From the NCBI GenBank assembly GCA_014324115.1, contig JACOMS010000001.1, positions 23,089 through 87,088 on the forward strand: DNA of 64,000 nt. The letters run 5' to 3'. A program made the position numbers and the translations under genes. This stretch comes from Hyphomonadaceae bacterium (lineage in GTDB: Bacteria > Pseudomonadota > Alphaproteobacteria > Caulobacterales > Maricaulaceae). Numbering within the stretch: position 1 is the first letter of the stretch; every line of letters starts with the position of its first letter. Positions 1,697 to 64,000 of this stretch are shown piece by piece. The notes beneath the pieces are model-generated. The model was not told the origin of the DNA. It saw nothing but the letters and a program-made list of their open reading frames with translations, and searched no databases.

Positions 1697-2813
1697 AAGA
1701 CTGTTGCGAGCACATGCTGAGGGTATTTTGTTGTTGTTTAATGAAGTATGATTGGCTTCAGCGATGGCATTTAACTGGAGGCTTGCATGGACCTCTTTAT
1801 GGGTTTGCTTTTGGAGCGGGTTGCATTGGACAATGTGCTGCGCAAGGTTGGGGCATTGATTGGCGGCACGTTGGCTGGAAGGTGGGCAAGGTTCGTTTGC
1901 AGCTTGGCCGGTCGGGTTATGACGTGGATTTGATGCTGCGTGTTCTTTTGCCCGGCCAAAGGCATTCTCTGTCGGATCGGAAACTGGAAGAGGCTTTGCG
2001 TGTGCGTTTGGATTTCATGTTATTTTGTGGTGCGTCGCTTTTTGAGAACGTCCCGGATCACAGGACGCTCTGCGGTTTCCGTTGTGCGCTGGTGCGGTTG
2101 GGTTTGTTTGAGGCTGTTCCGGGTGAGGTCAACCGCCATTTGTGCGCGCATGGGCTGAAAGTAGAGCATGCGGCGATGGCAGTGTGGTGACGGAGTGCCT
2201 GTGGGCGGACCCTGATGGGTGCTGGTTGAAGAAAGGTAACACATTGTACTTCGGCCACAAGGGCTTTTGGCGCAGGGATGGCTATGTGGAGGTTGTGCCT
2301 GTCCGTCCCGCGAACGCAGTTGAAGCGCCCCATCTGCCGCACCAGCTCAAGGGATGCAGGGCGGTGCGTGTTCTGGCGGACAAGGCCTGTTCCAGTGAGA
2401 CGAACGGCGCAGCGCTTGCCCGACAGGGCTTGAAATCTGGCGATCATGTACCGGGCGGGACGGAACCATCCGCCAAGCGCCTGGCAGAGGAAGTTCAACC
2501 GGCTGGTGGCGAAGCGACGCTGGATCATCGGGCGAACGCTCAAGGGTCTCTTCCATGGGGGGCGTGCCCGCTACATCACGGGGGAGAAAGTCGAGGCGGA
2601 GTTGACCTTCAAGGCAGAGGCGATGAATCTGCTCAAGGCGGCCAACCGCATTGACCTGGTGGCTGCGTGAGGGGGAGTCTGTCCAAAATTATCTGATACC
2701 GCAAATGTCAGAGCGGAAAGTGCACGCGTCAGCACCAGACACGCGCGCGCCGGGCCCGAAAACGGCGAGAATCCCAAAGTGCTGGCGAATCTGAATAAAT
2801 TCGCAACAGTCTT
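1697..2813 (+). mobile_element. IS5-family insertion sequence, complete ends, decayed
   Basis: The element is bounded by a perfect 13-bp inverted repeat: AAGACTGTTGCGA at 1697-1709 and its complement TCGCAACAGTCTT at 2801-2813, giving 1117 bp. Between them lies one transposase gene (1787-2670) broken by frameshifts, then about 130 bp of non-coding tail. I see no convincing target-site duplication at the flanks, which fits an old insertion. Two internally deleted relatives sharing end and internal sequence occur at about 26095-26336 and 63409-63629, both in the opposite orientation. The IS5 assignment rests on the transposase; the subgroup is uncertain. Confidence 0.85.
1787..2670 (+). pseudogene. 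IS5-type transposase, frameshifted
   Basis: A DDE transposase read in at least three frames. The start MDLFMGLLLERVALDNVL at 1787 runs to about 1860, where four bases appear to be missing (a GATT repeat) and the frame changes. The next segment contains WRHVGWKVGKVRLQLG, LSDRKLEEALRVRLDF, VPDHRTLCGFR and AHGLKVEHAAMAV, ending near 2190. The middle part around 2200-2440 includes WLKKGNTLYFGHKGF, which resembles the usual GYK block, and the last segment has AWQRKFNRLVAKRRWIIGRT (with the conserved Glu replaced by Gly) and VEAELTFKAEAMNLLKAANR. Several shifts and a lost catalytic Glu mean it cannot make active transposase. Confidence 0.88.
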
Positions 2814-26094: not shown

Positions 26095-26336
26095 ACAGGT
26101 AATACCCGTCAATTAGTTACGGCGAGCAACCTCTGAAACTGTCTTGAGGATCAGTTCCGCCTCGACTTTCTCCCGCGTGATGTAAACGCACTGCCAATCA
26201 ATCAGCACCCGCTCCGGGAGCAAATTCATAAACAAAGTCCATGTAAGCCTCCGGTCCGGTGCCATTTCTGAAGCCGGTCACACTCCATATAAACAGGAAC
26301 AGAAAATTCCCATCTCCGCGTTTTTGCAACGGTTTT
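26095..26336 (-). mobile_element. Internally deleted relative of the 1.1-kb IS
   Basis: Read on the minus strand from about 26336, a degenerate end (AAAACCGTTGCAA, 10 of 13 bases matching the IS end at 1697) is followed by leader sequence alignable to 1710-1786, including CGGCTTCAGAAATGGCAC. A start like MDLFMNLLPERV then continues to the equivalent of IDW and jumps directly to the transposase C-terminal region (YIT-EKVEAEL). About 700 bp of the transposase are missing. The other end near 26095 is blurred. It lies in the 523-bp gap between galU and the giant lipoprotein gene. Confidence 0.8.
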
Positions 26337-61825: not shown

Positions 61826-62794
61826 TCAGTCCGCAGGATTGATCGAAAGCTCAATGGTGTGGATGACATTCTCGCCCTGGAACGCGTAATAACGGGAGAC
61901 CGTGTACCCCTGATCCCGGAGCATATGCTGGATGCTGTCCTCACCGAGCAGGTGTGCGATACCGACAGCGGCCAGGCCCGTGCCGCCGCCTTCGAGGAAT
62001 TTCCGGAATTTCCGGGTCCAGTCCTGATTGCGTTCCCTGATCAGGCTTGAGTAAAGCTGCGGCGATTTCTGCCGGATGGTATCAACCGTGTGGGTCCTGA
62101 CCCTGTCCGTGTCCCCTGCTGCCCAGGCCTCGGCAATGCGGCGCAGGTCCGGGCCCATGGTGTTGAACCGCTCCAGCGCTTCGGTGAGCAGGATCATCTG
62201 CACAAACTCCGGCTGATCGGCGCTGGCCCGGATTTGCCGCTCGGTATCGTCAAGATAAATCACATTTTTACGCAGGCGTTCGGCCCGGTTTTTAAGTGCT
62301 TCATCCGCAGCCAGATCCGGCAAGAGGCCTTCACCGGCCGCCGCTGCGACCGTGAGAAATTCACTGGCCAGCCACGGCGCCATACTGTCCAGCGCGACGT
62401 AAGGAATATTGCCGTTATTCGCCGCCGCTTCGAGGAGTTTCAGCTCATAGGGATCAAGCCGGTCCGAGAGTCGTTGTCCGGGTGACAGCTGCCCCAGATC
62501 CCGGGTCAGGATACCGGCTTCAAGACGGGCATGGGGGCCCGTATCCAGCTCGAAAAATATCGTCCCGGCGCGGTCGAACACCTCGCGCATGTCGTCGCGC
62601 TGCCAGTCCAGTTCCGGCGGCAGGAGATGCACGGTGCCGTAGAGATAGAGCTCGCTGTCAGGATCGCGCACAACCCATATGGGCGGCCCGTCATTGCGTG
62701 TGCGGGCCCCGGACACGCGCTCATCAACGCTGCCGCCGACCCCGCAGGCAGCGGTAAGCAGGTAACACATGGTCAGAAGAGCAAAGCGCCACAT
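61826..62794 (-). CDS. TraB/GumN-family lipoprotein
   Basis: 322 aa. Lipobox LLTAAC (Cys17) after a short signal peptide; then the TraB/GumN domain: YLYGTVHLLPPELDWQRDD with the conserved GT-H, RAGTIFFELDTG (Glu), GNIPYVALDSMAPW and TGLAAVGIAHLLGEDSIQ with a GxxH motif. The family is related to metal-dependent hydrolases of Tiki type; the bacterial substrate is unknown. It lies 36 bp upstream of manC on the same strand, and the two may be cotranscribed. Confidence 0.9.
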   Translation of the reverse strand: MWRFALLTMCYLLTAACGVGGSVDERVSGARTRNDGPPIWVVRDPDSELYLYGTVHLLPPELDWQRDDMREVFDRAGTIFFELDTGPHARLEAGILTRDLGQLSPGQRLSDRLDPYELKLLEAAANNGNIPYVALDSMAPWLASEFLTVAAAAGEGLLPDLAADEALKNRAERLRKNVIYLDDTERQIRASADQPEFVQMILLTEALERFNTMGPDLRRIAEAWAAGDTDRVRTHTVDTIRQKSPQLYSSLIRERNQDWTRKFRKFLEGGGTGLAAVGIAHLLGEDSIQHMLRDQGYTVSRYYAFQGENVIHTIELSINPAD

Positions 62795-62942: not shown

Positions 62943-63010
62943 GGCCCCCGTAGATCAGCCGGGTAGAGCGTCGGCCTCCGGAGCAGGATGTCGAGCGCTG
63001 GTTCAGAAAG
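62943..63010 (+). pseudogene. Degenerate tRNA-Arg(CCG)-like sequence
   Basis: Keeps a D-arm-like GATCAGCCGGGTAGAGC and an anticodon region TCGGCCTCCGGAGC (anticodon CCG, as in the intact gene 180 bp downstream) and a partial T-arm (GCGCTGGTTCAG). The acceptor stem has no 3' partner and the anticodon stem has a mismatch. Probably a dead duplicate or a remnant of an attachment site. A fragment of 78 codons across it is not a convincing protein. The rest of 62795-63123 has no gene, apart from a short direct repeat AGGTATCAC near 63090-63105. Confidence 0.6.
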
Positions 63011-63123
63011 TTAGGGCACGGAAAAAGGAGTTGAGTTTCAGGGGCTTGCCCAAGACCCAAATTTGGATGAAGACTTGAAGAAAATCGCCAGGTATCACAT
63101 AGGTATCACCGTTCTACGGTTGT

Positions 63124-63200
63124 GGTCCCTTAGCTCAGCTGGATAGAGCGCCGCCCTCCGAAGGCGGAGGCCAGAGGTTCGAATCCTCTAGGGACCGCCA
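63124..63200 (+). tRNA. tRNA-Arg, anticodon CCG
   Basis: 77 nt with encoded CCA. Acceptor GGTCCCT pairs with AGGGACC; D-arm GCTCAGCTGGATAGAGC; anticodon stem CCGCC/GGCGG with loop CTCCGAA (CCG, reads CGG); T-arm AGAGGTTCGAATCCTCT; discriminator G. tRNA-Arg genes are frequent island insertion sites, and the sequence downstream changes to mobile-element remnants and restriction genes. Confidence 0.97.
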
Positions 63201-63408
63201 TTCTTCTCTAAAAAATGCAAAAGCAACCGGTCTTGGACGTACCGATAGCTTAGCGTACTGACATCAAGAGCGTCCCCAACCGTCACTGGCGGTTCAGCAC
63301 CGGTATCCGGGAGCAGACTTTTTCCTGCCTGATTTAATCCGGTAGCATCATGTCCGGTGACACCGCCGCCCCATGGCCATAATGCGTCGTCAATACGATG
63401 GCCTATTG
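63201..63408. other. Unassigned stretch after the tRNA
   Basis: I see no gene, repeat or tRNA-end duplication in these 208 bp. A minus-strand frame (63188-63625) crosses it and the tRNA end, but its sequence is not protein-like. Confidence 0.5.
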
Positions 63409-63629
63409 AAGACTGTTGCGAATTTATTCGGATTCGCCGGGGGTTCGGGGTTTGCACCGTTTCCGGTCCCGGCGCGCGGGTGTCTTCTGGTGCTGATGAC
63501 CGTATTATCCGGTCCGAAACCTTGCTTAATGATCCAGCATTGCTTCGCGACCGGCCGGTTGAACCTCTTCTGCCAGGCAGTCGGTGCCCCCAACAGAAAA
63601 TCCCACCCCCGCGCTTTCGCAACAATCCT
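63409..63629 (-). mobile_element. Internally deleted IS derivative, 221 bp
   Basis: Ends AAGACTGTTGCGA (63409-63421, exact match to the 1.1-kb IS end) and TCGCAACAATCCT (63617-63629, two differences from the complement). Read on the minus strand: left-end leader GAAAGCGCGGGGGTGGGATT; the fragment AWQKRFNRPVAKQCWII of the transposase C-terminal region; then a jump to the non-coding tail, alignable with 2725-2813. The element lacks most of the transposase, resembling a MITE made from the same IS family. Confidence 0.82.
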
Positions 63630-63732
63630 CCGTTTGATTCTCCCTGATTTCCTGCTATCTGTCAGGTACAGACAGGAAAGCTGCGTGCAGGAATTACCCG
63701 CTGAATTCGACCGCAATTCGGCGTTGTGTTTT

Positions 63733-63849
63733 ATGCCTGAAAGCCGCATCACGGAACATGTGCAGACGACGAGGGAGCCGGAGTTGATGCAGGACCTCAT
63801 CCCGCTTCTGCGCCGCAAGGGGAAACTGGAGGCTTATGAAGAGCGGTGA
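63733..63849 (+). pseudogene. Unrecognised ORF tail before hsdS
   Basis: Frame continuing from the IS derivative to a stop at 63847-63849. The last 38 codons (from ATG 63733: MPESRITEHVQTTREPELMQ and LRRKGKLEAYEER) look protein-like and overlap the hsdS start by 14 bases, the typical arrangement of restriction operons. It could be the 3' end of a gene, for example an hsdM-like one, cut by the IS insertion, or a small independent gene. I cannot name it. Confidence 0.4.
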
Positions 63850-64000
63850 TAACAGGCCCGAGAGGCTGGTCCCGGCCCTGCGCTTTCCCGAGTTCCGGGA
63901 TGCCCCGCCGTGGCAGGTGAAGCGGCTGGGGGAGGTGGTGCAGTGGGTTCGTACAAACAATTTTCCGCGGGCTCGTCTAACCGATTCCGGCGGCGAGGTT
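63836..64000 (+). CDS. hsdS: Type I restriction specificity subunit HsdS (5' part)
   Basis: 55 codons, running off the window end. The product begins MKSGDNRPERLVPALRFPEF, then WQVKRLGEVVQWVRTNN, which matches the common HsdS N-terminus (PxLRFPEF...W...LGEV, first target-recognition domain). HsdS sets the DNA target of the HsdMR methyltransferase/endonuclease. The ATG at 63836 overlaps the upstream ORF end. Whether hsdM and hsdR exist beyond the window is unknown. Confidence 0.8.
   Translation, partial: MKSGDNRPERLVPALRFPEFRDAPPWQVKRLGEVVQWVRTNNFPRARLTDSGGEV

What the first reader, a model, noticed from the sequence alone, without database searches (positions are those of the whole stretch)
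62943..64000. tRNA-Arg duplicate, IS derivative and hsdS: probable start of an accessory island
A degenerate tRNA-Arg(CCG) lies 180 bp before the intact gene, and mobile-element and restriction sequence follows. tRNA-Arg genes are common integration sites. The remnant may mark an older attachment event.
Basis: inference. Interest (0 to 1): 0.5.

Follow-up and report, generated by a model that had tools for sequence, protein, structure and literature searches.

The report
Scattered type I specificity hsdS genes
The window ends inside one of at least a dozen related "target-choosing" genes of DNA restriction systems that this bacterium has scattered, one by one, beside housekeeping genes and that seem to swap their recognition parts; it is not clearly the start of a tRNA-anchored gene island.

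Summary
In detail: intact tRNA-Arg(CCG) 63124-63200, a decayed 5' part of a second copy 62944-63005, an internally deleted IS5-family element with both ends 63411-63627, and an hsdS start at 63836. Position 64000 is also the end of the assembly contig. The TraB/tRNA-Arg(CCG) pair is ancestral (eight of nine congeners). No integrase, hsdM, hsdR or tRNA 3'-end repeat is present, so the island reading is unproven. The better explanation lies genome-wide. Methylase_S matches 24 times on about 19 contigs; 60 relatives have at most 3 each. Only two hsdR and two type I hsdM loci were found. About 13 solitary hsdS loci sit beside housekeeping genes (hslV, alaS, rpoC, lysA, argG). Most carry one of two shared leaders, one ending in an hsdR tail. 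Identical recognition-domain stretches recur at loci with diverged flanks; spacer-helix pN/pS is 0.15; IS ends are over-represented at cassette borders. I infer a dispersed specificity repertoire serving two R-M systems, like those of Helicobacter and Mycoplasma, but large, in an alphaproteobacterium, with two systems exchanging parts. Expression and methylation are untested.

The parts
61826..62794 (-). TraB/PrgY/GumN-family gene, conserved neighbour of the tRNA-Arg
   Evidence: Pfam PF01963 E 3.7e-59; neighbour of tRNA-Arg(CCG) in congeners
62944..63005 (+). decayed tRNA-Arg(CCG)-like copy, 5' two thirds only
   Evidence: local alignment score 52-56 vs shuffles at most 37; not called by ARAGORN or Rfam
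63124..63200 (+). intact tRNA-Arg(CCG)
   Evidence: related genes next to TraB in congeners, 86-90% identity
63411..63627 (.). internally deleted IS5-family-like element (217 bp) with both terminal inverted repeats (GACTGTTGCGA...)
   Evidence: same internal deletion junction as beside hsdS at the left end of C47
63632..63835 (+). leader shared with other dispersed hsdS copies (C47L, C47R, C67, C28; partly C31)
   Evidence: 78-91% identity to the window
63774..63849 (+). vestige of the last ~25 codons of hsdR, overlapping the hsdS start by 14 nt as in the hsdR-hsdS operon on C11
   Evidence: tblastn and alignment to C11 hsdR
63836..64000 (+). hsdS, first 55 codons, cut by the contig end
   Evidence: ORF; contig length
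63871..63938 (+). conserved hsdS repeat 'x' (PALRFPEFRDAPPWQVKRLGEV), about 90-98% identical at about a dozen other places

Best explanation
The feature at the window end is one member of a genome-wide set of solitary hsdS genes. Each encodes a specificity subunit with target recognition domains set between repeats (x-TRD1-y-x-TRD2-y), and most are preceded by one of two shared leaders. Shown: the set is dispersed, its members stand without hsdM or hsdR, only two hsdR and two type I hsdM loci were found, reading frames are mostly open, and recognition-domain sequence is shared between loci whose flanks have diverged. Inferred: the subunits combine in trans with the HsdM/HsdR of two type I systems (one EcoR124-like on C11/C38, one HindI-like on C33/C64), giving many modification specificities, and recombination at the repeats moves domains between loci. 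Inferred more weakly: copies were spread with the help of the IS whose ends lie at several cassette borders.
For: 24 Methylase_S matches on about 19 contigs against 0-3 in 60 relatives and at most 12 in a class sample of 192 genomes; that 12-match genome has mostly hsdS linked to hsdM/hsdR. Different housekeeping flanks at each copy. In two congeners lonN-Trm112-(102 aa gene)-hslV is contiguous, while here hsdS parts lie after Trm112 (C89) and before hslV (C70); alaS/tRNA-Asn gives a second such site (C65/C72). Shared leaders. Contig pairs C31/C47, C70/C84, C55/C101 and C64/C96 end in identical 99-mers inside hsdS while sequence further inward falls away. TRD2 of C116 (family 1) matches TRD1 of C5 (family 2), 67% aa over 163 residues. 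pN/pS 0.15 in the spacer helix. hsdR x2, type I hsdM x2. IS right-end fragments: 6 of 16 places lie beside hsdS, in about 5% of the sampled DNA.
Against: All solitary copies but C5 are cut by contig ends, so no intact two-domain solitary gene is seen on one contig, and C5 itself is split by a frameshift. The C89 and C70 parts carry domains that do not fit one two-domain gene. No convincing promoter in the leader. No expression or methylation data. Purifying selection on the helix could partly reflect gene conversion. No single cassette shows IS ends on both sides, and the IS-enrichment test used a sample that was not random.
Confidence: 0.7

Rival explanations
1. One reading: a genomic island integrated at tRNA-Arg begins here and carries an hsdRMS system; the degenerate tRNA marks an older integration.
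For: tRNA genes are frequent integration targets (general knowledge); downstream DNA is not shared with congeners; contigs of five congeners also end just past this tRNA.
Against: The remnant keeps the 5', not the 3', part of the tRNA; no 3'-end repeat; no integrase on any hsdS contig end; hsdR and hsdM elsewhere; the same cassette occurs at many sites without a tRNA.
Confidence: 0.12
2. Silent cassette archive: dispersed hsdS copies are donors that feed recognition domains by gene conversion into the operon hsdS on C11 (and C33/C64), as pilS feeds pilE.
For: Domain sharing between loci; copies lack their own hsdM/hsdR; no clear promoter.
Against: Most copies have a conserved leader and start codon and stay open; the C11 operon copy has a different spacer helix (DCLQTWDEAIEK...) from most dispersed copies, so it is not being homogenised with them.
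Confidence: 0.3
3. Assembly or binning artefact: strain variants of one phase-variable hsdS locus, or contaminant contigs, were binned together.
For: Nearly all copies lie at contig ends of a 125-contig assembly with 99-bp overlaps.
Against: Flanks are different housekeeping genes, several syntenic with congeners; leaders differ by 10-38%; contamination 0.27%; shared repeats explain why the assembler stops there.
Confidence: 0.07
4. Selfish dispersal: hsdS is a passenger of a non-autonomous IS-derived element and is of no use to the host.
For: IS right-end fragments upstream (C65, C5, C101, direct) and downstream (C37, C84, inverted) of hsdS; the IS remnant plus leader occurs as one unit at C1 and C47L.
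Against: IS copies are frameshifted whereas hsdS frames are mostly open with helix pN/pS 0.15; no cassette has both IS ends.
Confidence: 0.2

Closest known systems
Helicobacter pylori type I Group 2/3 S genes and domain movement (DOMO), Furuta et al. 2011 (PMC3077401)
   Same: x-(TRD1)-y-x-(TRD2)-y repeats; S genes at multiple chromosomal loci with R and M linked at only one; TRDs move between positions and loci; one- and three-TRD forms.
   Different: More loci per genome here (about 13 solitary), two R-M families sharing TRDs and leaders, a leader carrying an hsdR tail, IS ends at some borders, and a different class of bacteria.
Mycoplasma pneumoniae / M. haemofelis scattered hsdS (PMC4537597)
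   Same: 10 (M. pneumoniae) or 21 (M. haemofelis) hsdS genes in one genome, few hsdM; proposed to act in trans.
   Different: In M. pneumoniae variation is by 12-bp tandem repeats in the helix and hsdR is broken; here both hsdR frames are open and recognition domains are shared among loci.
Inverting hsdS loci (SpnIII type) and the REBASE survey of duplicated hsdS (PMC7394358)
   Same: Several hsdS copies with shared repeats permit switching of specificity.
   Different: Those copies lie within one locus (survey limited to 30 kb); here copies are dispersed and no recombinase gene is near.
EcoR124-like type I operon of Devosia sp. HyVt-528 (L052)
   Same: hsdR directly followed by hsdS; 76% identity in the HsdS central region.
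   Different: One operon hsdR-hsdS-ATPase-hsdM there.

Membership tests
Type I R-M specificity subunit (HsdS) | Methylase_S domains separated by conserved helical regions | tested here: met
   Two Methylase_S stretches in the C72 and C70 copies, one in C11; PADLOC Specificity_I. The 55 codons in the window are too short for a Pfam hit.
Type I R-M specificity subunit (HsdS) | HsdM and HsdR in the same genome | tested here: met
   HsdR on C11 and C64; type I HsdM on C38 (partial, contig end) and C33 (with an N run)
Multi-locus S genes with domain movement (DOMO type) | Repeats x and y flank TRDs: x-TRD1-y-x-TRD2-y | tested here: met
   Repeat positions in C11, C89, C72, C84, C70, C116
Multi-locus S genes with domain movement (DOMO type) | S genes at several loci, R and M linked at only one | tested here: met
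Multi-locus S genes with domain movement (DOMO type) | Same TRD at different loci and in different positions | tested here: met
   Identical termini C31/C47, C70/C84, C55/C101, C64/C96; C116 TRD2 vs C5 TRD1
Inverting phase-variable hsdS locus | hsdS copies within one locus, inverted repeats, often a recombinase | tested here: not met
   Copies on separate contigs beside unrelated genes; tyrosine recombinases only on C82, C1 (about 40 kb away) and C100
tRNA-integrated genomic island | Repeat of the tRNA 3' end | tested here: inconclusive
   None within the window at up to 5 mismatches; DNA beyond 64000 not available
tRNA-integrated genomic island | Integrase beside the tRNA | tested here: inconclusive
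   None in the 800 bp before the contig ends
IS5-family insertion sequence | DDE transposase and terminal inverted repeats | tested here: met
   DDE_Tnp_1; both ends GACTGTTGCGA in several copies. The assignment to IS5 itself rests on resemblance from memory.

The most novel reading that the evidence does not exclude
The genome carries a mobile, IS-associated repertoire of specificity-subunit cassettes shared by two type I R-M systems: cassettes insert next to housekeeping genes, are expressed from common leaders, exchange recognition domains and leaders across families, and give one cell many restriction and methylation specificities at once while also driving chromosomal rearrangement.
Probability: 0.3. 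Interest if true: 0.72.

Novelty: new variant of a known kind. Interest (0 to 1): 0.48.

Why it matters
Scattered hsdS genes with domain exchange are known from Helicobacter and Mycoplasma. A set this large, mostly with open frames, shared leaders and IS ends at several borders, in an alphaproteobacterium whose relatives mostly have none, offers a testable case of how specificity subunits are copied and spread. It also shows why short-read assemblies break at hsdS, so that such repertoires may be undercounted.

Tried and rejected
A tRNA attachment scar was rejected. Phage, plasmid or viral origin of 63201-64000 or of hsdS: no match. A second genome with many hsdS (G121) looked like a parallel case, but most of its hsdS are linked to hsdM/hsdR. 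The idea that every cassette is bracketed by inverted IS ends failed at C5, the only solitary copy held on one contig. The idea that C11 is the direct parent of all copies is weakened by its different spacer helix. A 43-codon frame between the two tRNAs and the leader's protein reading gave no Pfam match. Literature searches for dispersed hsdS outside Mycoplasma/Helicobacter found nothing closer. The species could not be named (records near the window's genome may be left out of the named collection); alpha_tmRNA places it in Alphaproteobacteria.

Full report
What was checked. The window is bases 23089-87088 of contig C1 of a 2.32 Mb, 125-contig assembly (90% complete, 0.27% contamination), and C1 ends at 87088. 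The finding therefore sits on an assembly break. The genome is alphaproteobacterial: it carries the alpha_tmRNA family, which rings only in Caulobacter among 14 controls.

The tRNA part. ARAGORN and Rfam find one intact tRNA-Arg(CCG) at 63124-63200. A decayed copy at 62944-63005 aligns with tRNA-Arg(CCG) at scores of 52-56 against at most 37 in 500 shuffles, but it lacks the 3' third. Seven of nine congeners have an intact tRNA-Arg(CCG) beside the same TraB/GumN and mannose-1-phosphate guanylyltransferase genes, and in an eighth (G002) the tRNA is cut by the contig end, so the pair TraB-tRNA-Arg is ancestral. Which of the window's two copies is the ancestral one is open: the decayed copy has the congeners' CCCGTAG near its 5' end, whereas the intact one has CCCTTAG and a different acceptor stem. 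A second intact tRNA-Arg(CCG) is on C7. No repeat of the tRNA 3' end exists in the window. In five of nine congeners the contig ends within about 270 bp of this tRNA's 3' end (G002, G005, G006, G007, G009), a hint that the site is variable in the genus.

The IS part. 63411-63627 carries both ends of an IS with one mismatch each and has lost its middle. The same deletion junction is seen next to hsdS at the left end of C47, so IS remnant and hsdS leader appear to have been copied together. A longer copy lies at 1699-2811 and an end fragment at 26135-26333. Dozens of copies are in the genome, many at contig ends, and none was found in nine congeners.

The hsdS part. The first 55 codons of hsdS (63836-64000) include PALRFPEFRDAPPWQVKRLGEV, a repeat found at about a dozen other places, nearly all within a few hundred bases of contig ends. 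Pfam Methylase_S matches the genome 24 times. Sixty relatives, including nine congeners, have 0-3 matches. In 192 genomes of the class, 57 have any, and the next highest count is 12; that genome (G121) holds mostly hsdS linked to hsdM or hsdR. Counting copies whose 5' side is seen: family 1 has C1, C47L, C47R, C31, C89, C65, leader-only ends C67 and C28, and the operon copy on C11; family 2 has C5, C53, C55, C101, C80 and the operon copy on C33/C64; a third small group is C24/C29 and C41. That gives 13 solitary loci in families 1 and 2 if the two leader-only ends are counted, 11 if not. Only two HSDR_N genes (C11, C64) and two type I HsdM genes (C38, partial; C33, with an N run) were found.

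Separate loci, not strain variants. The flanking genes differ at each copy: rpoC, lysA, alaS, ksgA/sulfotransferase, a short-chain dehydrogenase, uvrC, hslV, eno with tRNA-Asn, argG, proC/proA and fatty-acid oxidation genes (gene names from resemblance, several confirmed by orthology). In two congeners lonN, Trm112, a 102-aa gene and hslV are contiguous; here an hsdS 5' part follows Trm112 on C89 and an hsdS 3' part precedes hslV on C70, the 102-aa gene being absent from both ends. In one congener alaS is followed by a short gene and tRNA-Asn; here C65 ends with alaS-hsdS, and C72 begins with what reads as the rest of the same recognition domain, then tRNA-Asn and eno. The C65/C72 join is inferred from the domain sequence, not from overlapping reads.

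Leaders. In family 1 a leader of about 200 bp is shared by C1, C47L, C47R, C67, C28 and partly C31 (78-99% identity). It ends with the last 25-30 codons of hsdR, overlapping the hsdS start by 14 nt just as hsdR and hsdS overlap in the C11 operon. In family 2 a different leader of about 250 bp is shared by C5, C53, C55 and C101. Its last part resembles the sequence before the family 1 copies C65 and C89, so leader sequence seems to have moved between families. No convincing promoter was found, but the scan is only a sigma-70 consensus.

Domain exchange. Assembly contigs overlap by 99 bp. C31 and C47, C70 and C84, C55 and C101, and C64 and C96 end in identical 99-mers inside hsdS, while sequence further inward falls to unrelated or 40-80% identity. 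C70 and C84 share the end of a first recognition domain and the central region at 96.6% over 325 bp and then carry different second domains. The second domain of C116 (family 1) matches the first domain of C5 (family 2) at 67% amino-acid identity. The two parts flanking the Trm112-hslV site carry domains that do not fit one two-domain gene; a three-domain gene or a rearrangement through hsdS would explain it, and three-domain forms are known for such repeats (PMC3077401). In the spacer helix of the dispersed copies pN/pS is 0.15, and all solitary family 1 frames are open to the contig end, in contrast to the frameshifted IS copies.

How the copies may have spread. A profile built only from IS right ends away from hsdS finds right-end fragments upstream of hsdS at C65, C5 and C101 in direct orientation, downstream at C37 in inverted orientation, and beside C1; a second round adds C84 downstream, inverted. 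Six of 16 places lie near hsdS, in roughly 5% of the DNA examined (binomial about 8e-5). The sample was not random, the 5% is my estimate, and no cassette shows both ends, so IS-assisted spread is a hypothesis.

Comparison with what is known. S genes at several loci with R and M at one, x-TRD1-y-x-TRD2-y repeats and domain movement between loci are described in H. pylori (PMC3077401), and hsdS sets of 10 and 21 in Mycoplasma (PMC4537597). The present case works like these. It differs in the number of solitary loci for an alphaproteobacterial genome, in having two systems that share parts, in the copied leader with an hsdR tail, and in the IS ends. It does not meet the definition of an inverting hsdS locus, and the island definition cannot be tested beyond the contig end.

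Verdict. Ordinary parts (tRNA, IS, hsdS) were correctly seen; the island reading is only partly supported; the real interest is the dispersed hsdS repertoire, of which the window shows the first 165 bases of one member.

Noticed in passing
window 1699-2811: Longer, frameshifted copy of the same IS (both ends GACTGTTGCGA...), of which 63411-63627 is a deleted form.
   Followed up: partly
window 26135-26333: Isolated right-end fragment of the same IS.
   Followed up: no
window 63124-63200 and loci L109, L110, L170, L172, L175: Contigs of five of nine congeners end within about 270 bp after the 3' end of the same tRNA-Arg(CCG), suggesting a variable or repeat-bounded site in this genus.
   Followed up: partly
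L177 1493-1568 (contig C7): A second tRNA-Arg(CCG) in the genome, with an unusual sequence (GTACCCGCAGCCCAGCCGGATGG...).
   Followed up: no
L070 7776-9075 (contig C5): A solitary hsdS split into two frames between its TRDs, with a 5-bp gap against related copies; split HsdS halves can sometimes work as two polypeptides.
   Followed up: partly
L071, L132, L116 (contigs C33, C64, C96): The left end of C33 (hsdM-hsdS operon) overlaps both C64 (operon with hsdR) and C96 (beside a dienelactone-hydrolase-like gene) by 99 bp: the operon hsdS 3' half has a 95-98% identical copy elsewhere, or the population is mixed.
   Followed up: partly
L187-L193 (genome G121): Another alphaproteobacterial genome with 12 Methylase_S matches, here mostly linked to hsdM/hsdR genes.
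   Followed up: partly
L143, L144: A 102-aa gene between Trm112 and hslV in congeners is missing where hsdS sits in this genome.
   Followed up: no
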